64,000 nt of DNA from Phycisphaerae bacterium. Its GTDB lineage: Bacteria; Planctomycetota; Phycisphaerae; JAJVII01. Location: the NCBI GenBank assembly GCA_022072085.1, contig JAJVII010000015.1, positions 1 to 64,000 of the forward strand, given 5' to 3'. Below the pieces are notes generated by a model that ran no database searches, had not been told where the DNA came from, and saw only the letters and a list, made by a program, of their open reading frames with translations. Every line of letters begins with the position of its first letter. Position 1 is the stretch's first letter. The position numbers and the translations under genes are program-made. This document shows, piece by piece, positions 29,085-61,135 of this stretch.

Positions 29085-29160
29085 ACCCAGCCTGTGCGAT
29101 CATCCTGTCAGTCATTCATCGACGGGCGGCCGGCCCCGACCGGCGTCGCCTCGGCGTCAC

Positions 29161-39734: not shown

Positions 39735-40265
39735 TCAGGCGGGCGAGTAGGCGGGCACGCCGACGATCTGGTTGCACGGTTCCACGCTGTCGCGGCTGCC
39801 TTCGGGGTAGAAGCGGGCCTCGATCACGACCTCGCGGGTCCCCGTCGGCAGGTTGCCCAGAGGCAGGCGGAAACTGTAGGTAATCAGCCCGTAGCGGTCG
39901 CGCTGGACGCAGCCCAGGCTCTGCTCGAAGGGGATGTCATACTCGGCGCAGGGGATCCGCGTGCGGGCCGACTCCCGTCCGGGGAAGACCGAGAAGTGGA
40001 ACCGCCCGCGCCCAACGACGGCCTCCCACTTCGGCTGCTCGACGTAAAGGCGGCAGAAGACGGTGACGCTGTCGGCCCAGCCATCCTTGTCGGTGTCGCT
40101 GGCCACCGGCTCGACCGTGAAGCCGAGATGCTGCACGTCGGTCCTCGGCTCGGGCGACCGGGAGTCGGCGGACAAGCCCGAATGGCGCACGCAGCCGCCG
40201 AGGCCGGTCGCCGCCAGCAGGACACAGATCGCGAACGGGCGCACGGGACTCATGCTCGAACTCAC
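39735..40265 (-). CDS. Small lipoprotein coupled to gspD
   Basis: 176 residues. The signal ends in TGLGGC (Cys25 from the GTG start), so it is a lipoprotein. The mature part, with GFTVEPVASDTDKDGWADSVTVFCRLYVEQ, looks like a beta-sandwich; DTDKDGWAD resembles a calcium-binding loop. GTG 40265 overlaps the gspD stop as GTGA, which suggests coupled translation; ATG 40253 is an alternative. Secretins often need a small lipoprotein pilot (GspS, PilW or PilF in known systems). This protein resembles none of them that I know, but position and anchor make it a candidate. Confidence 0.7.
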   Translation of the reverse strand: MSSSMSPVRPFAICVLLAATGLGGCVRHSGLSADSRSPEPRTDVQHLGFTVEPVASDTDKDGWADSVTVFCRLYVEQPKWEAVVGRGRFHFSVFPGRESARTRIPCAEYDIPFEQSLGCVQRDRYGLITYSFRLPLGNLPTGTREVVIEARFYPEGSRDSVEPCNQIVGVPAYSPA

Positions 40266-43200
40266 TCCCGCCGGTCGGCGGTCAACAGGTCCGGGTCGAT
40301 GCGGACGGGCGGCAACTCCTCCGGCGGCGTCGGCGCCGCGTGGACCGAGGCGTCACCCAGTTCAACCGGTCCGGCCTTGGCCGGCGGCGCGAGGATGGCC
40401 GCCAGCCCCTGGGCCGCCGCCGACAACCCGACGCGCGGATCCGACGGGGCGACCGACCCCACGCGGCCGTCGGGCTGGGTGGTCGGCGACGGCGGAGCGG
40501 TCATCGAGCCGGGCTCGCCGGGAGCCGGCTTGTCCGGCGGGGTCGGCGCCTGCGGCGAGGGCAGCGGCTGATTGCGGGCCCCGGGCGTGCGAATCTCCGT
40601 GTCGACGCTCTGGGTGAACGGGGGCCCTTGCGGCGGGCGGATGTTCATCAGCTCGGTGTCCTCGCTGTTGCGCGGCATGATCGTGATGCGGTTGCGCTCC
40701 TCGGTGCTGACGCGGGCGGCGTCCTCGACGGTCCGCAGGACGCGCGGGGTCAGGACGATCAGCAGCTCGGTGCGTTCCTTCGTGCGGCTGGTGCTGCGCC
40801 AGGCGGCGCCCCAGATGCCGGGCAGGTCGCCCAGCACGGGAACCTTGCGCTGCGTGTCCGACTCGCTGGTGCGGATCAATCCGCCGATCACGATCGTCTG
40901 GTTGTCCTTGACGGTCACGGTGGTCGTCGCGGACCGGTTGTTGATGATAGGCAACTCCGTGCCGTTGTTGATCTGCACCGTGCTCTTGGACAACGAGCTG
41001 ATCTCCGGGCTGATCAGCATGTTCACGAAGCCGTCGGCGTTGATCTTGGGCGTCACCTTCAGGATGATGCCCACGTCCTCGTACGTCACGTTGCTGTAGT
41101 TGTCGCCGTTGCTGGTGATCTGCGTGCTGGTCACGATCGGCACGCGCGAGCCGACATTGATCTCGGCTTCCTGATTGTCGCTGGCCAGGATCTGCGGACG
41201 GCTGAGCACTTCGACCCGGCTCTGGGCGCGCAGCGCCCGCAGGAAGAACTCGAAGTCCGTGCCCGTCAGGCTGACCGCGATGCCGCCGTTGAGGGCCTGG
41301 GCGGCCTGTACGCCGAAACTGGTCCCGGCGCTGAACGTGCCGGCCTTGACGGCGGTCGTATACTTCAACTCCGCGCCGACCTGCGTGTCGTCGGTGAGCG
41401 TGACCTCGGCCAGCAGGACCTGGATGAGCACCTGCGGCGGCGGCTGGTCGAGCTCGTTGACGATCTGGGAGACCTCCTCGAAGTACCGCGGCGACGCCGA
41501 CAGCAGCAGCTTGTTGGAGCTGTCCTCTGCGACGACCGACACCTGCGTGTCCAGGGCCGCCAGCCCGCTCTTGGAGGCGTTGCTGCCCAGCAGGGCCGTC
41601 ATGTTCTGGCTCAGCTTGGTCAGGTGGGCGTTGAGCGCCGTGGCGATCTCGGACGCCTTGCCATTCTTGATCGTGTAAACCTTGTTGACGCGCTCGACGA
41701 CGTCCGAGCCGTCCAGCTTGTCGATCAGCTCCTTGACGACCTGGAGGTCCTCCGGCACGCCGGTGACGATCAGCGAGTTGGTCCGGCTGTCCACGACCAG
41801 GCTCAGTTCCGGCCGATAGGGGCTGGGCGGCGTGCCGCTGGGCGTGACGCCGGCGATGGCCGGACCGACAGCGGCCGGGGTGGCCGGCGTGGCCACCGGC
41901 GTCACCGGCGTCGGCATGCCCGCCGGGGGCGTCGGTCCGAGCTGGAACTGCTGCTGCGGCTGCTGCGTGTTCTTGTTCGACGACGCGCCGAGCTGGAACA
42001 GATCCTTGACGATCTGCGCCGTCTGCGAGGCGTCGGCATTCTTGAGCTGGAAGATCTCCACCTGGGCCCAGACGCGGCTGGGCGTGTCCAGTTCCTTGAT
42101 GAGCGATTCCAGCATGTCCACCGTCTCAGCCGGCGCCGAAAGCAGCAGACTGTTGGTCCGGGCGTCGGGGGCGACGAGGATTTCGTCCTTGTAGGTCAGG
42201 ATCGCCTGGCTGATCGCCTGGTTGTTGGAGACGAACTTGGTCAGCGTCGCCCGGCGGGCGCTGTTGGCGGCGCTGGAGCTGCCCTTGTCGCTGAGCATGT
42301 CGGCGAGGATCTTGGCCAGCGTGTCGGCTTCGGCGTTCTGAAGCGGGAAGATCCGCATCGTCTTGAACACCGTCACCGGGGCGTTGTCCAGCTTTTTGAT
42401 GAGGTCGCCGACGGCCTGCATGTCGGCCTTGGCGGCCTGAACGACGATGGCGTTGAGGCGGCTGTCGACCGAGATGTTGACGCTCTTGGACTGCGTCCGC
42501 TGGGCGTAGAGCTGCTTGAGCGTCTGGGCCATCGCGTCGGCGTCGGCCTGGAGCAGCGGGAAAATCTGCGTGCCATCCGACGCATCGGGCGTGCGGTCGA
42601 GCTTGGCGACCAGGTCCTCGACGATGCTCATGTCGTCGCGCGTCGCCGAGACGATCAGCGTGTTGGAGGCGTCGTCGGCTGCGATGGTCACCGCCGCCGA
42701 CTGCGTTGTGCCTGCGCCTCCGGCGCTGCGCCGCTTGGTCATCAGGCTGTCCAGCATCGGGGCCAGCGTGATGGCCGACGCGCTCTTGAGTTCGAACAGG
42801 CGGATGTCCATCGTCCGCGTCGGGTCCACCTTGTCCAGGTCCTTGAGCAGCCGCTCGACGTCGGTGAAGGCCTCCTTGCTGCCCGAGACGATCAGCGTGT
42901 TGGAGCGGATGTCGCTGGTGACGGTGACCGGCAGCAGGTCGACGCCGGCCTGCTTGGCGGCCGCCTGCTTGCGGTCGAAGAGCTGCTGGAGCAGCGGGGC
43001 CGTCTTGGTCGCGTCAGCGTTGACCACCGGGAACAGCCGGATGTCGCCGAACGCCCCCTCGGGCGTCGGCTTGTCCAGCGTGTTGATCAGCCCCTCGATG
43101 ATCGCCAGGTTCTGCTTGCTGGCCGACACCACCACCGAGTTGGTCCGCAGGTCGCTGGTGATGGTGACCTTGTCGGCCGGCGTCGCGGTGCGCGAGGCGG

Positions 43201-46200
43201 CCTGCCCCGGCACGTAAATGCCGTTCTTGTAGAGCCCGCTGACCATGTCGGCGACGCGGTTGGCATCAGCGAACTTCAGCACGTAGAATCGCACCAGCCC
43301 GCTGTCGCTGGGCGGCTCGATGTCCAGCTTGCTCAGCAGGCCCTGGAGGATCTCCATGTTCGATTTCTTGGCCGTCACGATCAGCGAGTTGGTCAGCGGC
43401 TCGACGCCGATGGTGACCTGGTCGGACGGCAGGGCCCTGGCGCCGGGCGCCAGCGAGGCGTTCAGCCGGTTGGTGAACAGCGTCGTCAGCAGCGGGGCCA
43501 GCAGGCCCGCGTCGCCGTGGGCCACCGGGACGATCTGCGTTTCGATTGACCCGCTCAGCGAGGGCACGTCAAGCTGGTTGACCAGCACCTCGACGAGGGC
43601 GACGGCCTCCTCGACGCCGGCGGCCAGCAGCGTGTTGGTCCGCGTGTCCACGGCGAACGAGACCTGGTTGGCCAGCGCCTTTCCGACAGCCGATTCGGTG
43701 GTCACCTGGCCCGGGGCGGCAGGCTTGCCGGTGCCCGGCTGAAGCAGCAGCTTGCGGGAATCGTCGAACAGCTTGCTCAGCGACTGCGACAACTGCGTCG
43801 CGTCGGCGTTCTTGACCGGGAAGATGCGGACGGTGACCGCGTCGGCCAGCGGCAGAGCGTCCATCATCTTGATCACCGCGGTGATGGCCGCCACGTTCTC
43901 CTCGCTGGAGCTGATGACCAGCGAGTTGGTGCCGGCCTCGGGGGTGATGTTGATCGGCTTGTCCAGGTCCAGGTCCGTGACCGGCTTGCCATCGCCGGTG
44001 ACTACCTTCATGCGGCGGATCTGCTCCTGGATCGCCTTGGCGGCCGGCGTGACCACGCCCTTGTCGTCGCGCTTGAGCATGCCGGAGATCACCGTCGCCA
44101 GCTTGGTCGCGTCGGAGTGCTTGAGCGCCAGCACGGTCATCACTGCTTCGGAGAACGGCGGCACCTGGTCGAGCTTGTCGACGAGTTCCTGAATCTGCGG
44201 CAGCATGTTCTCCGGCGCCGTCACGATCAGCACGTTGGTCCGCTCGTCGGGGGCGATGGAGAACTTGATCCCCGGCTGACCGCCCTGGCGGAGCATGTTG
44301 GTCAGCATCGTCGCGACCTTGGCCGCCTCAGCGTGCTGGAGGGCGATGATCTTGAACCCCGACGGGTTCACCTGGATCGCGTCAAGCTGCTGGACGAGCC
44401 CCTCGACCTCGGCCATCCGCTCCGCGGAGGCCGCGACCACCAGCGAGTTGGTCGTCGCGTCGCCGCTGACGCTGATCTGGTCCTCGGGGCGCAGCGGCTG
44501 GCCCCGGCGGCTGGCCAGTTGCTGCTGGAACAGCCGCGTCAGGCTCTGGGCCAGCGCCGCCGCCTGGGCGTTCTTGAGCGGGAAGATCTTCACCTGGAGC
44601 TTCTGCGGACCGGAAGCGGCCTCGATCTGGTCGATCAGCTTCTGAAGCTCGGCCATCGTCTTCTCGTCAGCCGACACGATCAGCGCCGACGCATTGGGCA
44701 CGCTGGAGACGTCCACGCGGACGCCGGGCATGGCCCGCGGGCCGGTGGAGCCCTTGGCGCCCTTGGCGCCGGACTGGCCCTTGATCATCTCGTCGAGCAA
44801 CTTCTTCATGTCGTCAGGGCTGGTGTTCTTGAGCGGGACGACGTAGACCTTCAGATCCCCCCCGCCGGGTGGGATGGTGTCCAGCTTCTCGATGAGCTGC
44901 TCGATGGCCGGGAACTGGTCCGCCGGTCCTGCCAGCACGATCGAGTTGGTCCCGCTGTCGGCGCCGATGGCGACGCGGGCGGCCTTGGCGCCCTTTGGCG
45001 TCGTGGAGTTGACGGCGGCGTCGTGGACCTTCTGGAGCATCGGGGCCAGGTCGACGGCGTCGGCCCGGTTGAGCGTCACGACCTTGGTCTCCATCTTGCC
45101 GGAGATGTCCTCGCGGTCCATCTGGGCGACCAGCGTGGTCACTTCCTTGATCTGCGCGTCCGTGCCGTTGATCAGGATCGTGTTGGAGGCCGGCTCGGAG
45201 GTGATGACGGCCGGCGTGGCGCCGGCGCCTCGGCCGCGCCCGCCGCCGGACTGCTGGTAGAGCGGCTTGAGGGCGTTGACGATGTCGTCGCTCTTGGCGA
45301 ACTTGAGCTGGAGGGTCTGGACCTTGCGGGCCGCCCCTTCGCCGGACTCAAGCTGCTTGATGAGCCCCTCGATCATGGTCTGGTCTTCGGGCACGCCCAT
45401 CACGATGACGGTGTTGGTGGTGGCGTCGCCCTGGGCTGACGCGACCGGGCGGCCCTGCACGCGGGGCTGGGCGCGGACGACCTGGTTGATCGCCGCCGCC
45501 ACGTCGGTCGCCTGGGCGACCTTCAGCGGGTAGACCTGCATCTTGGGCACCCACTCGTTGCCCGCGTCGAGCTTCTCGACCATCGCGGCGATCGCCTTCT
45601 GGTCGATCTCGGGCGCGGTCACCAGCAGCGAGTTGCTGGCGGTGTCGGCGGCGATCTTGACCGATGTTCCGGTCGCCCCGCCGCGACCGCCGCGCCCGCC
45701 GCCGCTGCCGCCGTAGATCTGCGACAGGGCCTGGGCGAGCTGCCGGGCGTCGCCGTACTTCAGCCGATAGACGACCAGCACGCCCTCGGAGCCCTTCTTG
45801 TCGAGTTCCAGGATGAGCTGGCCGATCTCCTCCATGTCCGACGCGGCGGCCTTGACGATCAGCGAGTTGGACCGCGGGTCGGGCGAGACGACGGCCGGCG
45901 TCGTCTGCTGGCGGGCCGTCCCGCCGCGGGCCTGGCGCTGCTGGGTATAGGTCGCCGTGAAGATCGGCGCCAGTTCCTCGGCCCGTGCGTTGGACAGCGG
46001 GAAGATCTTGACCTTGGTCTCAACCGCGACCGGGGCCTTGTCCAGGATGGTCAGGAGCTGCTCGATGACGGCCAGCCCCTCGGTCGGCGCCGCAACGACC
46101 AGCGAGTTGGCGGCCGTGTTGGCGGTGATCGTCATGCGCCCGGCGTTGATCAACTGGATCATTTCCTGATCGGTCGGCGCCGTGCCGGCCTTCTGCATGC

Positions 46201-49200
46201 GGACGATCTGCTGCTTGAGGGCCGCCAGCGTCGTGCCTGACTCCTGTCCGCCGCCGCCGCCGGTCATGCGGAAGAGCTGCTTGAGGTTGCGCTCGGCCTC
46301 GGAGGCGTCGATGTTCTTGAGCGTGAAGACGCGGACCTCCAGCACCCCCGGCGGCAGCACGACATCCAGGGCGCGGACCAGCGGCTCGATCAGGGTGAAC
46401 TCCGACGAGCTGGCCTTGACGATGATCGAATTGGTCCGCAAGTCCGGCACAACGGTGATCCGGCGCACGACCTGGCGGGCGGCCTGCTGCTGCGGCTGCT
46501 GTGCCTGACCCGGCTGGGTCTGGCCGTTGGTCTGGCCGCCCTGCTGGCCGCGACGGCCGCGGCCGCTCTGGTTCTGCTGGTCGCCGCCCTGCTGCTGTTG
46601 CTGGATCTGCTGAACCTGCTGCTGCACCGTCTGGGCGGTCTGGGCGGTGCGGACGTCGTTGAACAACTTCTCCAGCGTCGCCGCCAGGGACTCCGGCTCG
46701 GCGTTGGTCAGCTTGTAGATGCGAATCTCGTAGTCGGTCCCCTGCCCCGACTCGGCCAGCGCGTCCAGGATGTCGTGAATCCGCTGCACCTGGTCGGCAG
46801 TGCCCTGCACGACCAGCGCGTTGGTCACCGGGTCGTAGAAGACGGTCGGCGGGATCGACTCGTCGGCCGGCTGCGTCGTCGGTCGGCCGGCGGTCATGAC
46901 GTGGCCCTTGGGCTTGCCCGTCGGGCCGCTGTCGTCGGGAACCTCGATGGTGGGCGGCTCGCCGTTGCCATTACCGTTTCCGTCGCCTTCGCCGTCGGCG
47001 CCGATCGCGGCGGCGAGGATGGCACGAACCATTGGCCCAAAGCGTCCGAACGAGCCGGGCGTCAGTTGCGAGTGCGGCTGGCCGGGCGCAGCCGTCGGCC
47101 TGACCGGCGGCGTCGCGGGGCCCGTCGGCTGGCTCATGTCGCGGATGATGATGCCGCCTTCGTCAGGGGCCTTGAACTCGATGACCTTGACGCCCCCGTT
47201 GGACTCGTCAAGCTGCGGGTAGATGATCTGGAGCGACTGGGCGGCCTTGCGGGCGTTCATGCCGCGCGGCAGCGGAATGATCTCGGTGACCACGCGCCTG
47301 CCGCCCTCGGTCGTGCCCAGCCCGTCCATCTCGGTGACCAGCTTGTCCACCCAGACATACTGCTCGTCGGTGCCCGAGAAGATGATCTGGTTGGTGATCA
47401 GGTCCGAGTCCATCGTCGGGGCGTGGCCCTTGCCCCAGCGGTCCTCAGCCAGCGGCCTGAGCTTGTCGATCAGTTCGTCTGCCTTGGCGGTGAACAGCGG
47501 GATGTAGTGAATCTGGGCCCGGGCGACCGGGGCGACGTCGAGCTGGCGGATCAGCCCGTCGAGCACCTTCCAGTTGGCGTCGGTGGTGTTGATGACCAGG
47601 GCGTCGCCGCTGGGGTCTTCGGCGATGGTCATGGGCCCGGAGACTGGCGAGCCCTGGCGGCCGTAGAGGTCGTTGATGACCTTGATCATGTCGGCCGGCC
47701 AGACGTTGGCCAGCACCACGCGGTGGATGCTGCTGTTGGCGCCGGCGCCTTCCTGGAGCTTGCCGACGAGCTGCTCGATGGCCGCCACGTCCGTGCCCGG
47801 TCCGGTGACGATCAGGCTGTTGGAGGCGACGTCGGTGGCGATCCGCGCGTTGGACCCCGCGACCTTGGGGCCGTTCTGCTGGCCGATGCCCAGCGCGGTG
47901 CGCAGGGTGTTGGCCATCTCGTCGGCCTTGGCGGAAGTCAGCCGCACGATGCGGATCTGCGGGACCGCGTCGGGCCCGCCGGCGGCCAGGTTGGTCACGA
48001 GCTGCTCAGCCGTCTGCACCAGGTCCGGCGCCCCGGCCAGCACGAGCTGCGTGCCCTGCTGGTCGGCAGAGATGCGAAGCTGCTCGGTCGCCGGGCGGCC
48101 CTGGTTCTGGCTGGCCAGCACGGTCTGGAGCACGCTCACCAGGTTCCAGGAATTGCCGGTGGCCACGGGCACGATCTTGACGACCGAACGGGCCAGCACC
48201 CGCGTCCGCAGCCGCTCGATCTCCTTTTCGATCAGCGCGAAGTCGTTGGCCCGGGCCGTGACGAACAGCGTATTGCTCATCGGCTCGGGGACGAAGGCGG
48301 CAATCATCTCCTCGCGGCGGATTTTCTCGGCGAACGCGACGCCCAGCGCCGAAGCCAACTGCTGGGCGTTGGCGCCGTCGGCCAGTTCGTAGCTGCGCGT
48401 CGTCGCATCGGGCGCCGCCTGGCCGCCGTCGAGGCTGGCGATGATCTGGGAAATCTGGGGCATCGCCGAAGCCGACGCCGACACTACCACGGCGTTCTGG
48501 TTGCGGTCGGGCGAGATGCGCACGTCGCCCAGGTCCCTGCGTCCGCTGCACAGGTTGCTGAGGATCGCAGCCACGTCGTCGGCCTTGGCGGTTGTGTTCA
48601 GTTTGATCAGCCGCGTCTCAGCCGACGGCACGCCGGCCTTGTCCAGGTCCTGGATCAGCGGGACGACCTCGTTGTAGGCGTCCTTGTCGGCGATGACGTA
48701 GAGACGCCCGGTTGTGTCGTCGCCGCGGAAGCGGATCTGGAGCTTGCCCTCGCTGGCGCGAATCTTGTTCAGGTCCGCGTAGAGATCGGTCATGGTGGCG
48801 GCAACGGTGCTGGCGTTGGCGACCTTGAGTTCGACGCCGCGAATGTCGGGCGACGTGCCGGCCATGCCGGGCCGGTCCAGTTCCTTGAGCACTTCCTGAG
48901 CGAAGTCGACGGCGCCGGCTTCGCCGGTGACGATGACGAACCGCCCATTGGGCGAGGGGGCGACCTGGGCATTGTACTGCTGGCCGGTGAGAATCTGGCC
49001 CAGCGGACCGGCGACCAGGTGCGAATCCAGGTTGTTTACGGGCAACTGCCGCAGGACCGTGCGGCCCTTGAACTGCTGCTTGAGCGTCTCGAGCATCTTC
49101 TCGATGCGGGCGAAGTCGGCCTTGCGGGCCGTGACGAACAGCAGCGCGGATGCCGGGTCGGCGTCGAAGGAGGCCGCCATCGCCCCGCTCTTGACGTCGG

Positions 49201-52200
49201 GCGCGAACGCCCGCACCAGGTCGTCGCGGGCCGACGCCGCCGCCTGGCCGCTGCTCATCTGGTAGTTGCGGACCTCGGTCACGTCGTCGGCCGACTCGGC
49301 GTCCAGCTTGCCGATCGCCTGAACCATGTCCTCGACGACGTGCGGGTCGCCGGTGAGGATGATCCCGCGGCCGGCGGGCGCCGCCACCATCTGCGTGTTC
49401 TTGGGCAGGACGAAGCCCTGCCGCCGCCCGTTGTATTGCCCGTAGAGTCGGCTGACCGTCTCGATCATCCGGGCCGGGTCGCCCTTGATCGCCACGGTGC
49501 GGACCTCGGCGCGCTGGCCCTGGCTGGCCTTGTCGATTTCCTCGGCCAACTGCTTGACCCGGGCGAAGGATTCGTCGTCGGCGAAGATGAACAGCCGCCC
49601 GCTGTCGGCGTCGGCCTGGAGGCGAACCTGCGGCTTGCGCTGGTGGCGGAGCTGGCGGTTCACGTCCTGGAGCAGGTTGTTCAACGTGTCGGCCACCTTG
49701 GCCGGGTCGGCGCTCTCCAGCACGACGGCGTGGAACGGCAGCGTCTGGTCCTCCAGGTCGGGCACGTCAAGCTGCTTGACGAGCTGGCCGACCAGGTCCA
49801 GCGTCTGCGTGTCGGACCATGCGAACAGATTGCCGCCGCGGTCGTCCGGCTGCAACCGCAGGCGGTCGTCGGCCGGTCCCGTGTGCGGCCGGGCGCGGAC
49901 CAGGGCGTCGATTGGCCCGGCCAACTGGCTGGGCAGCGCATACTGGAGCTTGAAGGAGCGCATCGCCCCCTTGCTGCGCAGCTCCGACTGGGCCTCGTTC
50001 AGCTTGGCCTCGACCAGCTTGAAGTCGCTGGGCTTGGCGGTGACGAAGATCGTCGCCGTCGGGTCGTCCACGTCGAAGCTGACGGCCAGCTCGCCCGAGG
50101 CCAGCTTGTCCGACAACAGCTTCTGGACCAGCGTGACGGCCTGGCGGGCCTGTTGGGCGGTCTGGGCCTTGTAGGTCCGCAGTTCGCTGTTCTCGTTGAC
50201 GATGCCCGGCTGGGGAACGTCGAGCTGGCGGGTCAGCTCGCGGACCTGCTCCATCTGCGTCGGCTGAGCGTCAACGACGAGGATCATCCGTTTGTCGTCG
50301 CTGACGGTGGTCACGCCGCCGGAGGCGGCGCGGTTGTAGCGAGAGGCCCCGCCGAAGAACTGCTGCACCGCCCGCTCCAGCTCGCTGGGCTTGATGTTGG
50401 TCAGCCGGAATATCTCGGTCTTGGTCTTCTGGTCGGTCGCGGACTTCTCCAGGTCCTCCATCAGCGCCTTGATCTGCTGCCATTGCTTCTCGGTGCTGGA
50501 CAGCAGCAGGCTGCGGCTGTCGTCGCTGGCGTCCATGATCGGCTTGGGGTCGCCCAGCTTGCCCGTGTTGACCAGCATGTTGTTGACGTGCTCGATGAAC
50601 TTGCGGGCGTCGAGCTGCCTGAGGTCCACAATGCGGATATCGCGGACGAGTTCTTCGTCAGGCTGGGTGGACGCCCCCGGCACGGGCACGTCGAGTTCCC
50701 TGATCAGCTCGTCGGCGCGGTCCATCATCGCCCCGGCGTTGGTCTGGAGCAGCAGCGTGTTGAGGCGGTTGTCCTCGACGACCTCCAACTTCAGCTCGCC
50801 CTGCCGCGGGATCAGCCGACGCAGCGTGTTGGCCAGTTGCGACGCCTGGGCATACTTCAGCGTGACGATCTTGTGCTGCTCGATCGACTCCTGCACCTTC
50901 TCCAGGTTCGCGATCAACTCCTCGATGTCCTTCATCCGAGCCGGGGTGGCCGTCACGATCAGGCGGCGGAACTGCTCGTCCACCGTGACGCGGATGTCGG
51001 ACCCGGCGGCCACAGGCTTGCCGTCGCCTGTGTATTTCTGGCCGCGGAAGGCGTTGCTGATCACGTCGCTGGCGCGGCGGACGTCGGCATGCTGGAGCTG
51101 GAACATCTTGGTGACCAGGGTCGCCTGCTCGCCGCCGAGCTCGGTGTCCAGCTTGTTGATGATGTCCTCGACCTGCTTCATGTCATCATGCGAGGCCATC
51201 ACCAGGATCGACCCGGAACGCCGGTCGGGGACGATCGCGCCCGGCGTGCGGCGGTGGACGACGGTCTTGTCGCCTTCCTTGACCGTGATCGGCGTGCCGG
51301 TGAGCTGGATGAGGGTCTGGACCATCTGGTCGGGGTCGGCGAACTTCAGCTTGAAGACGCGGAACTCGACCTCCGTCGGGCTCAGGCCCGGCGTCTGAAC
51401 GGCGTTGATCACCGACGCCAGGCTGCGGATGTTCGCAGCCGTGTCGGTCACCACCAGCAGGTCGCCGCCGCTGGGGGACATCGCCCCGAACGTGCTGACC
51501 AGCGGCCGCAACTGGACGGCCATGTCGCGAGCCACGCCCGGCGTGGAGAGCACGACCGTGACGATCTGGTTGGGCAGCACGTCGGGACCGGGCAGCGTAC
51601 CCTTGTAGACCGGCAGCGGCCGGGTCTTCACCTCGGCCAGCGGCATCAGCAGCAGGTGGTTGCGGTCGCGGATCATGTACAGGCTGCGGGTCATCAGGAT
51701 CGAGTTGAGGACGTCGATCGCCTCGTCGATGGTGTAGGCCCGCGGGCTGTAGTAGGTCACCTCGCCGGTGACGTTGGTCGTGCCGATGATGCTCAGGCCG
51801 GTGATGCGGCTGAAGTACTGAAGGATGTTGGAAAGCTGCTGGTTGGCGAAAACGAATCGGATGGTCTTGGGAACCACGGGGGCCTGCGGCTGGGCCGGGG
51901 CAGCCGGCGCGTGCGGGGCCGGGCCGACGGCCACCTCGGTATCGGGCTGGGTCGTGGGGGCCTCAGCCTCCTGGTCGGGCTGCGTGGTCGGGGCCTCGGC
52001 CGCCTCGTCGGGCTGGGTGGTGGGCGCCTCGGCCACTTCCTCGATCACGAACGGGCCGATCACCTGGCCGGGACCGATCATGGGACTCGCGGCGATCCCC
52101 TCGCCGGGTGTGGACGGGCCGGAGCCGCCGGACCGCGGCGGCGGCGGCGGGCTGGCGGGGCGTACGCCGCTGCGACCGCTGTCGTTGCGTCCGCTGGTGT

Positions 52201-52429
52201 TGCCGGTGTTGGCGGTGTTGCCGGTGTTGTCATTCGTTCCGCTGACGCCCGAGGCCGAGCCGCCGTCGGGGACGCGAACGTATCGCACCTTGCCGTCAGG
52301 GTCGGTCACCTTCTGCCAGGTGTCGGCGCGCAGCAGGTGGGCTGTCGCCAACAGCAGGCCGACGGCCAACAGGCCCGTCAACCAGCGGCGCATGGGGCGG
52401 CGAAACGTGGTGGTTTGGTTGCTGATCAT
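40262..52429 (-). CDS. gspD: Giant type II secretion secretin with about 40 N-domains
   Basis: 4055 residues; ordinary GspD proteins have about 650. Layout: signal peptide (1-36), a low-complexity linker with three AEAPTTQPD repeats (133-163), an STN/N0-type domain at about 188-265 (IRFVFANQQLSNILQYFSRI), then about 40 N1/N2-type domains of 60-130 residues each (284-3660), then the secretin barrel (about 3663-3900; VLIQVLLAEV, VEVLSRPQILASDNQEAEINVGSRVPI, VPVLGDLPGIWG), then a Pro-rich tail. Repeat consensus: IFPLKNADAxxLAxxLxxLF, then RTNSLIVTA and IExLIxKLD. The barrel is normal, so it should form the outer-membrane pore. Three domains carry long Gln-, Asn/Gly- or Pro-rich inserts. It follows the GspM/C gene and is in frame throughout. 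Confidence 0.95.
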   Translation of the reverse strand: MISNQTTTFRRPMRRWLTGLLAVGLLLATAHLLRADTWQKVTDPDGKVRYVRVPDGGSASGVSGTNDNTGNTANTGNTSGRNDSGRSGVRPASPPPPPRSGGSGPSTPGEGIAASPMIGPGQVIGPFVIEEVAEAPTTQPDEAAEAPTTQPDQEAEAPTTQPDTEVAVGPAPHAPAAPAQPQAPVVPKTIRFVFANQQLSNILQYFSRITGLSIIGTTNVTGEVTYYSPRAYTIDEAIDVLNSILMTRSLYMIRDRNHLLLMPLAEVKTRPLPVYKGTLPGPDVLPNQIVTVVLSTPGVARDMAVQLRPLVSTFGAMSPSGGDLLVVTDTAANIRSLASVINAVQTPGLSPTEVEFRVFKLKFADPDQMVQTLIQLTGTPITVKEGDKTVVHRRTPGAIVPDRRSGSILVMASHDDMKQVEDIINKLDTELGGEQATLVTKMFQLQHADVRRASDVISNAFRGQKYTGDGKPVAAGSDIRVTVDEQFRRLIVTATPARMKDIEELIANLEKVQESIEQHKIVTLKYAQASQLANTLRRLIPRQGELKLEVVEDNRLNTLLLQTNAGAMMDRADELIRELDVPVPGASTQPDEELVRDIRIVDLRQLDARKFIEHVNNMLVNTGKLGDPKPIMDASDDSRSLLLSSTEKQWQQIKALMEDLEKSATDQKTKTEIFRLTNIKPSELERAVQQFFGGASRYNRAASGGVTTVSDDKRMILVVDAQPTQMEQVRELTRQLDVPQPGIVNENSELRTYKAQTAQQARQAVTLVQKLLSDKLASGELAVSFDVDDPTATIFVTAKPSDFKLVEAKLNEAQSELRSKGAMRSFKLQYALPSQLAGPIDALVRARPHTGPADDRLRLQPDDRGGNLFAWSDTQTLDLVGQLVKQLDVPDLEDQTLPFHAVVLESADPAKVADTLNNLLQDVNRQLRHQRKPQVRLQADADSGRLFIFADDESFARVKQLAEEIDKASQGQRAEVRTVAIKGDPARMIETVSRLYGQYNGRRQGFVLPKNTQMVAAPAGRGIILTGDPHVVEDMVQAIGKLDAESADDVTEVRNYQMSSGQAAASARDDLVRAFAPDVKSGAMAASFDADPASALLFVTARKADFARIEKMLETLKQQFKGRTVLRQLPVNNLDSHLVAGPLGQILTGQQYNAQVAPSPNGRFVIVTGEAGAVDFAQEVLKELDRPGMAGTSPDIRGVELKVANASTVAATMTDLYADLNKIRASEGKLQIRFRGDDTTGRLYVIADKDAYNEVVPLIQDLDKAGVPSAETRLIKLNTTAKADDVAAILSNLCSGRRDLGDVRISPDRNQNAVVVSASASAMPQISQIIASLDGGQAAPDATTRSYELADGANAQQLASALGVAFAEKIRREEMIAAFVPEPMSNTLFVTARANDFALIEKEIERLRTRVLARSVVKIVPVATGNSWNLVSVLQTVLASQNQGRPATEQLRISADQQGTQLVLAGAPDLVQTAEQLVTNLAAGGPDAVPQIRIVRLTSAKADEMANTLRTALGIGQQNGPKVAGSNARIATDVASNSLIVTGPGTDVAAIEQLVGKLQEGAGANSSIHRVVLANVWPADMIKVINDLYGRQGSPVSGPMTIAEDPSGDALVINTTDANWKVLDGLIRQLDVAPVARAQIHYIPLFTAKADELIDKLRPLAEDRWGKGHAPTMDSDLITNQIIFSGTDEQYVWVDKLVTEMDGLGTTEGGRRVVTEIIPLPRGMNARKAAQSLQIIYPQLDESNGGVKVIEFKAPDEGGIIIRDMSQPTGPATPPVRPTAAPGQPHSQLTPGSFGRFGPMVRAILAAAIGADGEGDGNGNGNGEPPTIEVPDDSGPTGKPKGHVMTAGRPTTQPADESIPPTVFYDPVTNALVVQGTADQVQRIHDILDALAESGQGTDYEIRIYKLTNAEPESLAATLEKLFNDVRTAQTAQTVQQQVQQIQQQQQGGDQQNQSGRGRRGQQGGQTNGQTQPGQAQQPQQQAARQVVRRITVVPDLRTNSIIVKASSSEFTLIEPLVRALDVVLPPGVLEVRVFTLKNIDASEAERNLKQLFRMTGGGGGQESGTTLAALKQQIVRMQKAGTAPTDQEMIQLINAGRMTITANTAANSLVVAAPTEGLAVIEQLLTILDKAPVAVETKVKIFPLSNARAEELAPIFTATYTQQRQARGGTARQQTTPAVVSPDPRSNSLIVKAAASDMEEIGQLILELDKKGSEGVLVVYRLKYGDARQLAQALSQIYGGSGGGRGGRGGATGTSVKIAADTASNSLLVTAPEIDQKAIAAMVEKLDAGNEWVPKMQVYPLKVAQATDVAAAINQVVRAQPRVQGRPVASAQGDATTNTVIVMGVPEDQTMIEGLIKQLESGEGAARKVQTLQLKFAKSDDIVNALKPLYQQSGGGRGRGAGATPAVITSEPASNTILINGTDAQIKEVTTLVAQMDREDISGKMETKVVTLNRADAVDLAPMLQKVHDAAVNSTTPKGAKAARVAIGADSGTNSIVLAGPADQFPAIEQLIEKLDTIPPGGGDLKVYVVPLKNTSPDDMKKLLDEMIKGQSGAKGAKGSTGPRAMPGVRVDVSSVPNASALIVSADEKTMAELQKLIDQIEAASGPQKLQVKIFPLKNAQAAALAQSLTRLFQQQLASRRGQPLRPEDQISVSGDATTNSLVVAASAERMAEVEGLVQQLDAIQVNPSGFKIIALQHAEAAKVATMLTNMLRQGGQPGIKFSIAPDERTNVLIVTAPENMLPQIQELVDKLDQVPPFSEAVMTVLALKHSDATKLATVISGMLKRDDKGVVTPAAKAIQEQIRRMKVVTGDGKPVTDLDLDKPINITPEAGTNSLVISSSEENVAAITAVIKMMDALPLADAVTVRIFPVKNADATQLSQSLSKLFDDSRKLLLQPGTGKPAAPGQVTTESAVGKALANQVSFAVDTRTNTLLAAGVEEAVALVEVLVNQLDVPSLSGSIETQIVPVAHGDAGLLAPLLTTLFTNRLNASLAPGARALPSDQVTIGVEPLTNSLIVTAKKSNMEILQGLLSKLDIEPPSDSGLVRFYVLKFADANRVADMVSGLYKNGIYVPGQAASRTATPADKVTITSDLRTNSVVVSASKQNLAIIEGLINTLDKPTPEGAFGDIRLFPVVNADATKTAPLLQQLFDRKQAAAKQAGVDLLPVTVTSDIRSNTLIVSGSKEAFTDVERLLKDLDKVDPTRTMDIRLFELKSASAITLAPMLDSLMTKRRSAGGAGTTQSAAVTIAADDASNTLIVSATRDDMSIVEDLVAKLDRTPDASDGTQIFPLLQADADAMAQTLKQLYAQRTQSKSVNISVDSRLNAIVVQAAKADMQAVGDLIKKLDNAPVTVFKTMRIFPLQNAEADTLAKILADMLSDKGSSSAANSARRATLTKFVSNNQAISQAILTYKDEILVAPDARTNSLLLSAPAETVDMLESLIKELDTPSRVWAQVEIFQLKNADASQTAQIVKDLFQLGASSNKNTQQPQQQFQLGPTPPAGMPTPVTPVATPATPAAVGPAIAGVTPSGTPPSPYRPELSLVVDSRTNSLIVTGVPEDLQVVKELIDKLDGSDVVERVNKVYTIKNGKASEIATALNAHLTKLSQNMTALLGSNASKSGLAALDTQVSVVAEDSSNKLLLSASPRYFEEVSQIVNELDQPPPQVLIQVLLAEVTLTDDTQVGAELKYTTAVKAGTFSAGTSFGVQAAQALNGGIAVSLTGTDFEFFLRALRAQSRVEVLSRPQILASDNQEAEINVGSRVPIVTSTQITSNGDNYSNVTYEDVGIILKVTPKINADGFVNMLISPEISSLSKSTVQINNGTELPIINNRSATTTVTVKDNQTIVIGGLIRTSESDTQRKVPVLGDLPGIWGAAWRSTSRTKERTELLIVLTPRVLRTVEDAARVSTEERNRITIMPRNSEDTELMNIRPPQGPPFTQSVDTEIRTPGARNQPLPSPQAPTPPDKPAPGEPGSMTAPPSPTTQPDGRVGSVAPSDPRVGLSAAAQGLAAILAPPAKAGPVELGDASVHAAPTPPEELPPVRIDPDLLTADRRE
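47540..50182 (-). repeat. Three tandem four-domain modules inside gspD
   Basis: Residues 750-1045, 1050-1335 and 1343-1630 each hold four N-type domains and are 285-296 residues long. Matching domains are alike: first ones share FVTA then DF and a IE/VE pair (IFVTAKPSDFKLVEAKL, LFVTARKADFARIEKML, LFVTARANDFALIEKEI). Third ones share QVRLQADADSGRLFIFAD and QIRFRGDDTTGRLYVIAD. The fourth ones of blocks one and three share PARMIETVSRLYG and PADMIKVINDLYG. Confidence 0.65.
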
Positions 52430-52497: not shown

Positions 52498-53664
52498 CTA
52501 CCGCGGTTCCGAATCGCCGACGCCTCCCGAGGCCGAGGTCATCGGCGCCAGCGGGACGTATTGCTCCGCGGGGACCTTGCGCTCGAACGTCTGCGTCGGG
52601 CTGACCTCGACGACCCAGCGACGCCCGTCCAGTTCGATCACGGCGTAGCACCGCGCGGCGTCCACGGCGACCAGCGTCCCGTCGTCGGGCAGCTTGTCGC
52701 CGACCTTGTAGTCGACGGTCGTCTTGGTCTTGCTGTTGGCCACCGAGGCGATGCCCACCGGCCCGCCCGCCCCCTCCTGCTCATACACGCCGCTCAGCCG
52801 AAGATAGCGGTCGATCGGGTCCGGCGGCGGTTTGACAGGATCCGGCGGTTTGACAGGATCCGGCGGCTTGACAGGATCCGGCGGCTTGACGACGACGACC
52901 GGCTTGGGCGCCTCCCACCGCTGGAACATGCTGTAGTTCGTGTCGGTCAGGCTGGCCAGCGTCGTCGACCAGGCAGGCGGCAGGGGCTTGCCCTGCTTCT
53001 TGAGCTTGTCCAGTTCCGCCTGCCGGGCCGTGGCGGCCTCGGCCTGGAGCACGGGCAACTCGGCCACGTCGAAGCGTTTGGGCTTCTGGTCCATCCAGAC
53101 CGATCGGTAGTGCAGTTCGCACTCCATCGTCGTCGTGGCCGGAGAAATCCTGTCGTTGTCGGCCAGCAGCGCCGGCTTGATGTCGATCTGCTGGATGGCC
53201 CCCAGCCGCTCGTACTCGTTGACGTGGCGGATCGCGGAAAGCGCATCCACCAGCGTGCCCTTTCCGTTGATGACCGCGTCGAAGGTCTGATAGTCCAGAT
53301 TGCTGTTGCGCATCTTGGGCGGAGTGGTCGTCACCAGCGGGCTGCGGGCGTCGCGCGGACGCAAGCCACGTCCCTCGCGGTCGCGCGACACCAGCCGCTC
53401 GAGCTGGTCGCGCATCGCGCTGGCGGCGTCGTTCACGGTCCCGGCGGCGTAGCTGCGCCGGCCGAGCAGGGCCCACCGGTTCTCCCACATCGTCCTGGCA
53501 TCGATGTCGGCCTTCTGGCGGGCGATGTCGTCGTCGATCCGCTTCTCGCGGGCCGCCAGGCCCTGCCAGGGCTCGATGAACAGGCTCATCCCCAGGCGCA
53601 GCGCCAGCAGCGAGCCGCCCAGGCCCAGGACGATGAACAGGAGCATGCGTTCGCGTTTCGCCAT
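52498..53664 (-). CDS. GspM-like protein fused to a GspC-type HR domain
   Basis: 388 residues. One N-terminal membrane helix (8-30), a coiled-coil stretch (36-60) and an alpha/beta region to about 200, the plan of GspM/PilO inner-membrane proteins. A Pro linker of four VKPPDP-type units follows (259-283). The last part (286-353), RLSGVYEQEGAGGPVGIASV, then YKVGDKLPDDGTLVAVDAARCYAVIELDGRRW, resembles the homology region of GspC and PilP, which binds the secretin N0 domain. No separate gspC exists in the operon. The domain reading is by eye. The gene lies 68 bases before gspD and 10 after gspL. Confidence 0.7.
   Translation of the reverse strand: MAKRERMLLFIVLGLGGSLLALRLGMSLFIEPWQGLAAREKRIDDDIARQKADIDARTMWENRWALLGRRSYAAGTVNDAASAMRDQLERLVSRDREGRGLRPRDARSPLVTTTPPKMRNSNLDYQTFDAVINGKGTLVDALSAIRHVNEYERLGAIQQIDIKPALLADNDRISPATTTMECELHYRSVWMDQKPKRFDVAELPVLQAEAATARQAELDKLKKQGKPLPPAWSTTLASLTDTNYSMFQRWEAPKPVVVVKPPDPVKPPDPVKPPDPVKPPPDPIDRYLRLSGVYEQEGAGGPVGIASVANSKTKTTVDYKVGDKLPDDGTLVAVDAARCYAVIELDGRRWVVEVSPTQTFERKVPAEQYVPLAPMTSASGGVGDSEPR
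52816..52890 (-). repeat. Tandem 18-base repeat in the gspM/C linker
   Basis: About four copies of an 18-base unit (GGATCC plus GGCGGTTTGACA in + strand reading) encode repeated VKPPDP. Copies two to four are nearly identical, which suggests recent slippage. Confidence 0.8.
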
Positions 53665-53674: not shown

Positions 53675-55363
53675 CTAGCGTCCTTTCACGGGCTGGTCCT
53701 GAATGATCCGGATCGTGAACCGCGTCTGGCGGCCCTCGGACCGGCGATCCGGCACGGGAATCTGTCGGCCGGCCACCTCGTTCACGCGGTAGAGGTCCTT
53801 GAGCTTCTCGCGCAACAGCGTCACGCGATCCATCGGAACCATGTTTCCCTTTTCGTCCTTCACCCGGACGTAGCCGTTGTCGGCCAACCCCTCCAGGGTG
53901 ATCGTCCACTCGCCCTTGTCCTTGTGCACGGCCGCGACGTGGAAGACGTGGATGCCGGAATGGAAATCGCGGAGTTCCTTCCAGGCGGCCAGGTCTTCGG
54001 GCGCGGTCGTCGGCTGCGGCTCTGCGCCGGCGACCCACATCTGGTTCAGCCGCTCCAGTTCCGTCAGCCACTCGGGGTCCGGCTGGGCGCGGGCGGTGAC
54101 GGCCTTCACCTGGTCGGCCAGGTCGCGAACGGCCTTGGCCTTGGGCTTGAGTTTGGCCAGTTCGCCGTCCTTGCGATTGACCTTGCCCTCGCTGATCGAA
54201 TAGGCCACCGCGTTGGCGACGATGCACAGCAGCAGGCCGGCCGCCACCGCCCCGCCGACCAGCAGCTTCTTGCGGCGCCGCCTGGCGTTCAGGTCCACCG
54301 GCTTGTGCGGGTGGAGGAAATCGAACGGCGGCTGGGCCTTGTCCATGTGCCCCATGGCCAGTCCGATGACCGCGGAGAACTCGCCCGCCTGTTCGCGCTG
54401 CTTTCGCGGCAGGTGGATCGACTCGGAGGGGTCGAGGATTCGCCCGGGAACCTCCAGCCGCTGGCTGAGCAGGTCGGCGATCGGACGGGCCATCCGCATC
54501 GGCGCCGCCACGACCACCCCCTCGACCTCCAGCCCGCTGACCGTCGCCCGCGCCGCCTGCACCGAGCGGAGCACTTCGAGGTTCAGCCGGTCCATGAACT
54601 CGCGCGACTCGGGGGCGTCGTGGGCCGAGTCCGGCCGGGCCGCCTGCACCGACGCCGATCGGCTGAACAGCAGCGTGCCCTTGCGGACGACATTGATCTC
54701 GGTCATCGCCGGCCCGACGTCCACCATCAGCAGGCAGGCGTCGTCGTGCAGGCAGGTGCGCAGGGTCCGCAGGTTGCAGAAGCAGCGCAGCCCGATGCGG
54801 GCCGCCGTCAGGCCCGCACGCTCCATGACGGCGGTGTAGTAATCGACGACCTCGCGGCGGGTCGCCGCCACGAGCAGTTCCGTGTTGGTGGCCGCCGGGG
54901 CGACGGGCGGCGGGGAGCCGTTGGCGGCGGCGCCGTTGGACGCCGCTCCGCCGTTGACGCCGGCCGGTCCTTCCGATCCGCCCAGGTGCTCGCCGACGGT
55001 GTAGTCGATGACCGCCTCGTTGGCGGCGAAGGGCAGTTCCTTCTGCATCTGGAACTGGACCAGGGCAGCCAGTTCCTCGTCCGGCACCGGGGGCACCGAG
55101 AGGTTCTTGAGCACCACGCGGTCGCGCGGCAGCGCCACCAGCGTCCGCGCCCCGGCGCAGCCGTGCCGCGCCAGCACGCCCCTCAGCCACACGCCGAACG
55201 CCCCCGGGTCGTCCGTCGAAACGGTCTGGGGCACCGACTCGCTGAACATGCGCTTCACGCTCAGCCGCCCCGTGCCGGCCTGCGCGGCGATGGCGCGGAC
55301 CTGTCGCTGGTCCCAGTCCAGGGCCAGTATTTCCCGGTTGAAGAGTTTCAACGTCAAGCCCAT
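53675..55363 (-). CDS. gspL: GspL/PilM-like assembly protein with PilN-like C-terminus
   Basis: 562 residues from the ATG at 55363 (GGAGA upstream). The cytoplasmic N-terminal part (1-345) is actin-like as in PilM and GspL: LALDWDQRQVRAI, TLVALPRDRVVLKNLSVPP, LLMVDVGPAMTEI, VVVAAPMRMARPIADLL. A membrane helix at about 367-389 follows a basic run, then a coiled coil and a periplasmic ferredoxin-like part to the end. This combines PilM- and PilN-type parts in one chain, as GspL does. It should link the GspE ATPase to the periplasmic parts. Residues 127-160 are a Gly/Ala/Pro linker. Confidence 0.88.
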   Translation of the reverse strand: MGLTLKLFNREILALDWDQRQVRAIAAQAGTGRLSVKRMFSESVPQTVSTDDPGAFGVWLRGVLARHGCAGARTLVALPRDRVVLKNLSVPPVPDEELAALVQFQMQKELPFAANEAVIDYTVGEHLGGSEGPAGVNGGAASNGAAANGSPPPVAPAATNTELLVAATRREVVDYYTAVMERAGLTAARIGLRCFCNLRTLRTCLHDDACLLMVDVGPAMTEINVVRKGTLLFSRSASVQAARPDSAHDAPESREFMDRLNLEVLRSVQAARATVSGLEVEGVVVAAPMRMARPIADLLSQRLEVPGRILDPSESIHLPRKQREQAGEFSAVIGLAMGHMDKAQPPFDFLHPHKPVDLNARRRRKKLLVGGAVAAGLLLCIVANAVAYSISEGKVNRKDGELAKLKPKAKAVRDLADQVKAVTARAQPDPEWLTELERLNQMWVAGAEPQPTTAPEDLAAWKELRDFHSGIHVFHVAAVHKDKGEWTITLEGLADNGYVRVKDEKGNMVPMDRVTLLREKLKDLYRVNEVAGRQIPVPDRRSEGRQTRFTIRIIQDQPVKGR

Positions 55364-55432
55364 GTTCTCCGTCCGACCGCCCCCGCGCCGGGCCGACCGG
55401 CCCGTCCGCGCAGGCTGCATGATACCCGCATT

Positions 55433-56887
55433 CTAACGCTCTGACCGCCCCTTGCCGCCCTCCAGATCGCCTGTCAGCACGTAGGCCGGACCCAGGTCCG
55501 TCAGGTCGCGGAAATAGAGCGTCCGCGAATTGCCCTGGGAGACGTCCACCACCACTTCGATCCGGCGGTAGAGCCCCAACTGCTCGCTGTAGCCGACCGA
55601 CTCGATGCGATACTGCTTGCCGCCGCCGCGCAGCGCCGGGGCCAGTTCCCTGAACCGTTCCACCGACAGCACGCCCTGCGTCAGCAGCCAGGCGTAGTTG
55701 TTGCGGTCAGCCGGCGCCAGGTTCGCCCTGGCGCTGGCGGCAGCGTCGGCTTCGGCTTCGTTGAACCCGACGGCCATCAGCACCACGCGCGAGGCAGCCG
55801 ACGGGTTCACCGTGCCCGACCGCAGCCCGCCCCGGCCGCCTCGGCCGCTGCCGGCGGTCAGTTCCTCCAGCACCCTGGGCAGTTCGTCCAGATGCCCCGT
55901 CGCCAGCGGCGAGGTGAGCTGCTGGTCCTTGCCGTTCACCTTCACCGCCTCATCGAAGCCGACCAGGTCCGCGGTGTTGGCAAAGGTCACGCCCGCCTGC
56001 CGGGCCTTGACGATGAAGTCAGCCAGTTCCTTGCTGATGCCCCGCCCGGTCAGGCTCCGCGACAGGCCCTGGCCGGACCCGTTGATATCCACGCGCTGCT
56101 GGCCGGCGGCGGTCTGTCCGTTGTCGAACGCGTAGACCGTCAGGTAGGGATACCACCCGCGGTCGAGCTTGCCATCGGCGTTGTCCAGCGGCAGCGACTG
56201 GTCGCCGTCGTTCTCATTGGGGTCCAGCAGCCCGTTGCGGTTCATGTCTTCGCCGTAGAGCAGCTGCGCCGTCACGCCGCGCACCAGCAGCAACTCGTCC
56301 ACCGACTGGAACAGCCCGCTGTTGTTGGGGCTGTAGGGGTTGTCGAGCTGCTCGTAGTAGTCGCGCTCCGCTCCCAGCGGCCGGGGCTCGTCGTTGGTGT
56401 CGCGCCAGTCGATGATCGCGTCGGCGATCTCCGGCGTCATGCCCGGCAGCCGCATGAGCTGCTCAGCCGTCGCCCCCGACAGCGACAGCTTGCCCGACTC
56501 GTCGGCAATGCCGTAGGCCGTCGTCTTGTCGTCGCGGTCGATCGCGTGAACCAGGCTGAACCGCCACTGCACCTGCCCGCCGTCGCTGACCAGCACGCCG
56601 CGGAACAGGTCCGGGTTGTCGGTGAGGTCCAGCTTCGGGTCGCGCGCGGGGTTGAGCAGCTCGGCGATCGCCAGGTTGACGCCCGAGCGGGCCGCCTCCA
56701 TCGCCTCGGCCGACCGCGTCCCGGCGGCGCTGCCCGCGGACTGAGACTGGACGAAGAAGCTCAACCCGGCCGCCAGCAGCCCGGCCATCATCACCACGAT
56801 CAGCGTGACGTAAAGGATCACGCCCCGTCGGCGGACGGGTGGCGCGGACCGGGTTGCCTTCGCATGGGTCATCTGTCGTTCGTTCAT
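55433..56887 (-). CDS. gspK: GspK-type minor pseudopilin
   Basis: 484 residues from the ATG at 56887; an ATG at 56872 and a GTG at 56899 are also possible. The prepilin-type N-terminus is RRRGVILYVTLIVVMMAGLLAAGLSFF, without the Glu at +5, as is usual for GspK at the pilus tip. Then come the helical domains of GspK: QLMRLPGMTPEIADAIIDWRD (helix-hairpin-helix type) with YYEQLDNPYSPNNSGLFQSVDELLLVRGV, and DMNRNGLLDPNENDGDQ, a possible Ca2+ loop. It is larger than typical GspK (about 330). It lies 14 bases after gspJ. Confidence 0.9.
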   Translation of the reverse strand: MNERQMTHAKATRSAPPVRRRGVILYVTLIVVMMAGLLAAGLSFFVQSQSAGSAAGTRSAEAMEAARSGVNLAIAELLNPARDPKLDLTDNPDLFRGVLVSDGGQVQWRFSLVHAIDRDDKTTAYGIADESGKLSLSGATAEQLMRLPGMTPEIADAIIDWRDTNDEPRPLGAERDYYEQLDNPYSPNNSGLFQSVDELLLVRGVTAQLLYGEDMNRNGLLDPNENDGDQSLPLDNADGKLDRGWYPYLTVYAFDNGQTAAGQQRVDINGSGQGLSRSLTGRGISKELADFIVKARQAGVTFANTADLVGFDEAVKVNGKDQQLTSPLATGHLDELPRVLEELTAGSGRGGRGGLRSGTVNPSAASRVVLMAVGFNEAEADAAASARANLAPADRNNYAWLLTQGVLSVERFRELAPALRGGGKQYRIESVGYSEQLGLYRRIEVVVDVSQGNSRTLYFRDLTDLGPAYVLTGDLEGGKGRSER

Positions 56888-56901
56888 CTGCCGGGGCACG
56901 G

Positions 56902-59761: not shown

Positions 59762-59788
59762 CAGTCGCTCCTTGAAAAGTAGTTCCAC

Positions 59789-61117: not shown

Positions 61118-61135
61118 GCAACTACGTTTCCGAAA

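What the first reader, a model, noticed from the sequence alone, without database searches (positions are those of the whole stretch)
40262..52429. Secretin with about 40 periplasmic N-domains (4055 residues)
A normal secretin barrel and STN/N0-type start are joined by a run of about 40 N1/N2-type domains where known GspD proteins have three. The frame is open over 12.2 kb and every repeat keeps hydrophobic positions and the RTNSLIVTA and KLD words, so the array is under selection. Known GspD N-domains rise roughly 3 nm each (general structural knowledge, approximate). Stacked, 40 rings would span on the order of 100 nm, much more than a usual periplasm. The channel may cross an enlarged periplasm, fold back, or form a different sheath. 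I know of no description of this.
Basis: partly seen in the sequence, partly recalled or inferred. Interest (0 to 1): 0.95.

Follow-up and report, generated by a model that had tools for sequence, protein, structure and literature searches.

The report
Giant planctomycete secretin with 40 N-domains
A bacterial export channel protein that normally carries about four small periplasmic domains carries about 40 here, and related planctomycetes carry 20 to 62, which would make a tube of roughly 100 nm or more if the domains stack as rings the way they do in known relatives.

Summary
Window 40262-52429 (-) is one open frame of 4055 aa: signal peptide, N0-like domain, 40 N1-type (Secretin_N) domains by my count, one secretin barrel, a proline-rich tail. 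It closes a type II secretion operon (gspE-F-G-H-I-J-K-L-M-D) and is followed by a small lipoprotein gene from a family with no Pfam name, found in 71 of the 80 named relative loci.

It is not an oddity of one assembly. A sister genus has the same domains in the same order. Of 139 orthologous frames in the class, 72 are at least 3000 aa, several on single-contig genomes. Fully read one-gene arrays hold 21-62 domains; other planctomycetes hold 5-12. In congeners the domains are under purifying selection (dN/dS 0.07-0.19, like the barrel). Arrays grew by multi-domain duplication. In one clade the array is cut into two or three separately exported proteins, each cut lying inside a domain, so two half-domains must meet.

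Best explanation: a T2SS secretin whose N-domains stack as many rings into a very long periplasmic tube. Fold and selection are shown; ring stacking and length are inferred. No published description was found in the open-access papers searched. New variant of a known kind.

The parts
40262..52429 (-). giant GspD, 4055 aa
52322..52429 (-). signal peptide region (residues 1-36, ...RRWLTGLLAVGLLLATAHLLRAD)
   Evidence: sequence; no signal-peptide predictor was run
51644..51862 (-). N0-like domain (residues ~190-262)
   Evidence: Pfam type_II_gspD_N0 24.5 bits, just under the curated cut-off
51380..51574 (-). first, divergent N1-type domain (residues 286-350)
   Evidence: read by eye; motif score not above chance
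46751..51370 (-). N-terminal, more diverged half of the array: 18 chained domains, one of them really two (residues 354-1893)
   Evidence: AlphaFold of residues 517-967, mean pLDDT 88
41444..46732 (-). C-terminal half of the array: 20 domains (residues 1900-3662)
   Evidence: AlphaFold of residues 3128-3917, mean pLDDT 75
40733..41236 (-). secretin barrel domain (residues 3732-3899)
   Evidence: Pfam Secretin E 2e-49; Foldseek hits to GspD structures
40265..40708 (-). proline-rich C-terminal tail (residues 3908-4055); no S-domain recognised
39735..40265 (-). small lipoprotein (lipobox LGGC), start overlaps the gspD stop; member of a conserved gspD-linked family without a Pfam model; pilotin-like role proposed
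52498..53664 (-). gspM-like protein (by position; homologue in the sister genus); its C-terminus weakly resembles the GspC HR domain (Pfam T2SSC E 0.03, below cut-off)
53675..55420 (-). gspL (PilM-type)
55433..56920 (-). gspK (pseudopilin; ORF listed as 55433-57187, coding start uncertain)
56902..57870 (-). gspJ (pseudopilin with N-methylation motif)
57871..58515 (-). gspI (by position and sequence; no Pfam hit)
58538..59185 (-). gspH
59303..59809 (-). gspG (major pseudopilin, T2SSG)
59897..61225 (-). gspF
61318..62997 (-). gspE ATPase

Best explanation
This is the outer-membrane secretin (GspD) of a planctomycete type II secretion system whose periplasmic N-domain stack has been lengthened about tenfold. 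About a dozen or more copies assemble a barrel in the outer membrane, and each of the 40 N-domains forms a ring with its counterparts, so the rings stack into a periplasmic tube with N0 at the inner-membrane platform. At about 2.5-4 nm per ring (Thermus PilQ, six N-rings plus secretin, is 35 nm long) the tube would be roughly 100-160 nm. It would let the pseudopilus-driven machine reach the outer membrane where the planctomycete periplasm is greatly widened. Ring number evolves by duplication of multi-domain blocks and is then held by selection. SHOWN: the frame, domain content, operon, fold of sampled stretches (predicted), purifying selection and domain-by-domain orthology in relatives, spread in relatives, split arrays. 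INFERRED: ring stacking, tube length, matching to a wide periplasm, secretion as the function.
For: Domains and fold: Pfam/NCBIfam. AlphaFold gives repeated beta-alpha-beta-beta-alpha units even in the most diverged part (517-967, mean pLDDT 88) and in 3128-3917; best Foldseek hits of both are GspD and other secretin-system chains. Operon gspE..M before gspD, same order in relatives. Genuine and old: the sister genus has a contig-truncated frame of 2217 aa with 17 of 18 domains as collinear reciprocal best hits; four congeners have 50/50 collinear domains, two others 38/38. Of 139 class frames, 72 are >=3000 aa, including single-contig genomes. Selection: dN/dS 0.07-0.19 in the array against 0.03-0.13 in the part after it, no domain above pN/pS 0.51. 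Fixed geometry: inter-domain linkers are 6 +/- 2 residues in 92% of 750 cases, while loops inside domains vary widely. The sheet face turned away from the helices keeps a hydrophobic strip (positions A3, A5, B13: 73, 75, 95% hydrophobic in 2118 domains), as expected of a buried interface (facing inferred from couplings). Split clade: two or three adjacent genes, cuts inside a domain, downstream pieces with their own signal-peptide-like start; complete two-gene totals 34-49 domains. Precedent: Thermus PilQ, six stacked rings spanning most of a wide periplasm (PMC5745081); planctomycete periplasm can be greatly enlarged (PMC5394234).
Against: No assembly was modelled. Monomer pTM is 0.40-0.41, so domain-to-domain orientation is unpredicted. 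Coupling analysis found no neighbour-domain coupling clearly above the lag-2 to lag-4 controls. The same genome has four secretins of only 487-860 aa, and some Phycisphaerae have an ordinary GspD of 685-850 aa, so a uniformly 100-nm periplasm is unlikely. No periplasm width is known for this uncultured organism.
Confidence: 0.62

Rival explanations
1. Beads on a string: only the few domains next to the barrel form rings; the rest hang as a flexible chain or cage of independent domains that tether the barrel to N0 and the inner-membrane platform or bind cargo.
For: AlphaFold gives well-folded single domains but no fixed arrangement (pTM about 0.4); no clear neighbour coupling; large low-complexity loops in several domains.
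Against: Near-constant short linkers, conserved hydrophobic sheet face in most domains, selection on single domains like that on the barrel, and cuts inside a domain in split arrays, which a loose tether would not require. Known GspD/PilQ N-domains form rings.
Confidence: 0.22
2. Stacked rings, but the tube does not span to the inner membrane in a straight line: it lies along, folds back in, or lines an invaginated periplasm, or acts as a storage or uptake conduit rather than a secretion channel.
For: Planctomycetes accumulate macromolecules in a convoluted periplasm by an unclear route (PMC5394234); ordinary secretins coexist in the same cell.
Against: An N0-like domain and a complete T2SS pseudopilus/ATPase operon are kept, which points to inner-membrane docking and export.
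Confidence: 0.1
3. The giant secretin is the planctomycete crateriform (pit) structure that clamps outer and inner membrane together.
For: [quoted passage not shown] secretins can make surface pores.
Against: Crateriform structures are reported in Planctomycetia, whose GspDs have only 5-12 N-domains in the loci read, and are reported lacking in described Phycisphaeraceae (PMC8882080); they hold the membranes close together, not 100 nm apart.
Confidence: 0.03
4. Assembly artefact or decaying gene.
For: Long repeats can be misassembled and this genome is a 72-contig draft.
Against: Domains are only about 23% identical to each other, so no repeat collapse or expansion is expected; single-contig genomes and dozens of relatives agree; dN/dS in relatives far below 1.
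Confidence: 0.01

Closest known systems
T2SS secretin GspD (TIGR02517; e.g. E. coli/V. cholerae/Klebsiella/Pseudomonas structures 5wq7, 5wq8, 6hcg, 5wln)
   Same: Secretin barrel, N0-like start, N1-type beta-alpha-beta-beta-alpha domains, gsp operon
   Different: About 40 N1-type domains instead of three; 4055 aa instead of about 650; no S-domain recognised; followed by an unnamed lipoprotein family
Thermus thermophilus PilQ
   Same: Extended periplasmic stack (six N-rings, 35 nm), read as adaptation to a wide periplasm (PMC5745081)
   Different: Type IV pilus/DNA-uptake secretin of 757 aa, six rings; here about seven times as many N-domains, in a T2SS operon
GspD of other Planctomycetota (Pirellulaceae, Gemmataceae and others)
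   Same: Related secretin barrel and the same downstream lipoprotein family in most loci
   Different: 1080-2160 aa with 5-12 N-domains in the loci read; intermediate in size between ordinary GspD and the Phycisphaerae arrays
Planctomycete 'giant genes' (PMC5177795)
   Same: Large single open reading frames are a known planctomycete trait
   Different: A text search of that paper finds no mention of secretion; giant genes are there ascribed mostly to surface proteins and PKS/NRPS

Membership tests
T2SS secretin GspD | C-terminal secretin barrel domain of GspD type | tested here: met
   Pfam Secretin E 2e-49; TIGR02517 1088 bits over cut-off 351; GspD chains are the best solved relatives
T2SS secretin GspD | N0 domain at the start | tested here: inconclusive
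   Pfam N0 24.5 bits, cut-off 27, at the expected place
T2SS secretin GspD | N1-type domains between N0 and barrel | tested here: met
   35 Secretin_N stretches; fold predicted and matched to GspD
T2SS secretin GspD | usual number of three such domains (N1-N3) | tested here: not met
   40 domains: hence a variant, not a standard member
T2SS secretin GspD | encoded with GspE, F, G-K, L, M | tested here: met
   (I and M by position and similarity between relatives)
T2SS secretin GspD | GspC partner | tested here: inconclusive
   No gspC gene recognised in the operon; gspM C-terminus weakly like the GspC HR domain, E 0.03, below cut-off; no structure hit by sequence
T2SS secretin GspD | S-domain and pilotin | tested here: inconclusive
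   No S-domain hit; an unnamed lipoprotein follows gspD
T2SS secretin GspD | forms a ring-shaped multimer and secretes folded proteins | not testable with these tools
   needs cryo-EM and secretion assays
Type IV pilus secretin PilQ | AMIN domains and pilus operon (pilMNOPQ) | tested here: not met
   No AMIN hit; the operon is gspE-M with a T2SSG major pseudopilin, although GspL is PilM-like
Crateriform structure component | present in species that show crateriform structures, absent where they are lacking | tested here: inconclusive
   Planctomycetia have short arrays; described Phycisphaeraceae lack the structures; no species-level match was made

The most novel reading that the evidence does not exclude
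Phycisphaerae build the longest trans-envelope protein tube known, 20-62 stacked secretin rings and probably 50-200 nm, with lineage-specific ring number; in one clade the tube is assembled from two or three separately exported polypeptides joined end to end by a ring domain whose two halves lie on different proteins and complete each other in trans.
Probability: 0.5. Interest if true: 0.95.

Novelty: new variant of a known kind. Interest (0 to 1): 0.86.

Why it matters
Secretins are among the best-studied bacterial channels, and a six-ring PilQ was described as one of the largest. Twenty to 62 N-domains across a large part of a bacterial class change what is thought possible for one transport channel, give a molecular handle on the debated wide periplasm of planctomycetes (does ring number track membrane distance?), and offer a natural experiment in modular growth of a machine, including arrays cut inside a domain. 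How a pseudopilus piston works through such a tube becomes a testable question.

Tried and rejected
Coupling (mean-field DCA) between neighbouring domains: top pair at lag 1 z 4.9 against 4.2-4.3 at lags 2-3, so no usable evidence for or against stacking. Search for other envelope-spanning proteins that would scale with a wide periplasm: no TamB; MCE proteins have one domain each; uninformative (PF13502 was not in the library). First alignment for the N-terminal fold failed because overlapping self-windows aligned by identity; redone with non-overlapping windows. Foldseek against viral models: low-TM matches to repeats of giant viruses, judged meaningless. GspC as part of gspM: below threshold. 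Crateriform-structure idea: judged unlikely on distribution. Ten literature searches (the cap) found no description of long planctomycete GspDs; two hits checked do not describe one. Subscription papers and bioRxiv preprints are largely not held.
Full report
OBSERVATION. The minus-strand frame 40262-52429 is open for 4055 codons. Codon-position GC is the same along the whole gene and close to that of the neighbouring gsp genes (GC3 0.92-0.96 against 0.90-0.92), so it is one coding sequence; the 2016-aa + strand frame over it is its antisense shadow. Pfam finds 35 Secretin_N stretches, one Secretin domain and a sub-threshold GspD N0; NCBIfam assigns GspD. A two-block motif model trained on this and 20 related proteins finds 38 domains here and none in 45,891 shuffled residues. 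One of these is two domains (973-1045 and 1052-1118), and a divergent first domain lies at 286-350 (read by eye; motif score not above chance), giving 40. The claim that all repeats keep exact words is not: the key Asn and the 'LD' are each kept in 24 of 38.

CONTEXT. The gene is the last gsp gene of gspE-F-G-H-I-J-K-L-M-D. The same order is found before giant gspD genes in other genomes and in the sister genus, whose contig breaks after 2217 aa of the same gene. The gene after gspD, 39735-40265, overlaps its stop by 4 bases and encodes a small lipoprotein. An iterative profile search started from a relative finds this family once in each of 82 loci, 71 of the 80 collected from named genomes plus 11 fetched regions; the window's own copy is the only hit among 360 window frames (E 3e-16), and Pfam has no model for it. 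A pilotin-like role is a proposal. The genome has four other secretins, 487-860 aa.

COMPARISON. In the class, 139 orthologous frames were found at E <= 1e-100: 72 of at least 3000 aa (median 4451), 8 of 2000-3000, 44 of 1250-2000, 15 below 900; the longest seen in any search is 6169 aa with 62 domains. Single-contig genomes G003, G037 and G031 carry frames of 4557, 4484 and 4634 aa; a complete chromosome, CP070772.1, has at least 40 domains in the part read. Other planctomycetes have 5-12 domains, outgroups about three. A quick tree of the barrel separates the loci with long arrays from a Planctomycetia clade of 5-12 domains (SH-aLRT only, no bootstrap; the window's own placement is weakly supported). 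Not all Phycisphaerae have one: several have ordinary GspDs, and many genomes have no match at these thresholds.

EVOLUTION AND SELECTION. Four congeners have 50 domains each, all reciprocal best hits in the same order; two others 38 of 38; L036/L037, in different genera, keep 38 of 39 collinear at 70% median identity. Within one protein the domains are only 20-30% identical on average, so each position has its own long history. dN/dS in the array is 0.07-0.19, against 0.03-0.13 for the part after the last N-domain, and no domain exceeds pN/pS 0.51. These pairs come from relatives; the window's own close relatives are too few for the test. Arrays L037 (62) and L039 (32) contain tandem copies of five-domain blocks, mostly at 60-88% identity: growth by block duplication.

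SPLIT ARRAYS. In one clade (SH-aLRT 96), apparently common in families f12, f14 and f17 as judged by frame length, the array is divided between adjacent genes. P1 carries 21-36 domains and ends in a lone first half (beta1-alpha1) of an N-domain; P2 has a signal-peptide-like start and begins with a lone second half (beta2-beta3-alpha2), then 11-15 domains and the barrel. The half-domain scores exceed the 99th percentile of shuffles in most cases tested (not every tail reached the listing threshold). L165 has three genes with two such joints (second joint read by eye), and L078 looks like an independent case. Totals of the complete two-gene cases, the cut domain included, are 34-49. Signal peptides were judged by hydrophobic stretch only. 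The simplest reading is that the pieces assemble end to end with the cut domain completed in trans.

STRUCTURE. [quoted passage not shown]), and with orthologues six domains plus barrel for 3128-3917 (pLDDT 75); best Foldseek hits are GspD and related secretin-system chains. Domain-to-domain orientation is not predicted (pTM 0.4). Linkers between domains are 6 +/- 2 residues in 92% of 750 cases, and coupling analysis is consistent with the fold and shows a conserved hydrophobic strip on the sheet face turned away from the helices. Both fit a regular assembly but do not prove rings. Neighbour-domain coupling was not detected.

MECHANISM. By homology with solved secretins, N-domains form stacked rings; Thermus PilQ with six is 35 nm long and is said to span most of a wide periplasm (PMC5745081). 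Planctomycetes have a periplasm that can be greatly enlarged (PMC5394234). I therefore favour a tube of about 100-160 nm that carries the T2SS across a wide periplasm; the rise per ring is an extrapolation. Against a uniformly wide periplasm stand the ordinary secretins in the same cell; planctomycete envelopes are, however, uneven, with close and wide zones (PMC5394234). Beads on a string is the main rival.

NOVELTY. Ten full-text searches found no description, within an open-access library. The protein belongs to the GspD family by its barrel, fold and operon, but departs from the usual domain number; it is filed as a new variant of a known kind.

Noticed in passing
window 39735-40265 (-): Lipoprotein gene overlapping the gspD stop; family found next to gspD in 82 loci across Planctomycetota, no Pfam model. 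Candidate secretin partner (pilotin-like).
   Followed up: partly
L046, L065, L068, L076, L078, L087, L106, L107, L162-L169, L171: GspD arrays cut into two (L165: three) adjacent genes, with the cut inside an N-domain and a signal-peptide-like start on the downstream piece.
   Followed up: partly
L160:3130-8328 (G000 contig 6): 1732-aa protein of the same genome with two strong Secretin_N domains but no secretin barrel.
   Followed up: no
L037 and L039: Tandem five-domain block duplications inside the array (mostly 60-88% identity), recent growth of the array.
   Followed up: partly
window 26477-31476 (-): ExbB/ExbD-like genes and two von Willebrand-type proteins with a similar layout, close to each other (read from the translations only).
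   Followed up: no
window 52498-53664 (-): gspM C-terminus after a PPDPVK repeat weakly resembles the GspC HR domain; possible GspM-GspC fusion, below Pfam's cut-off.
   Followed up: partly
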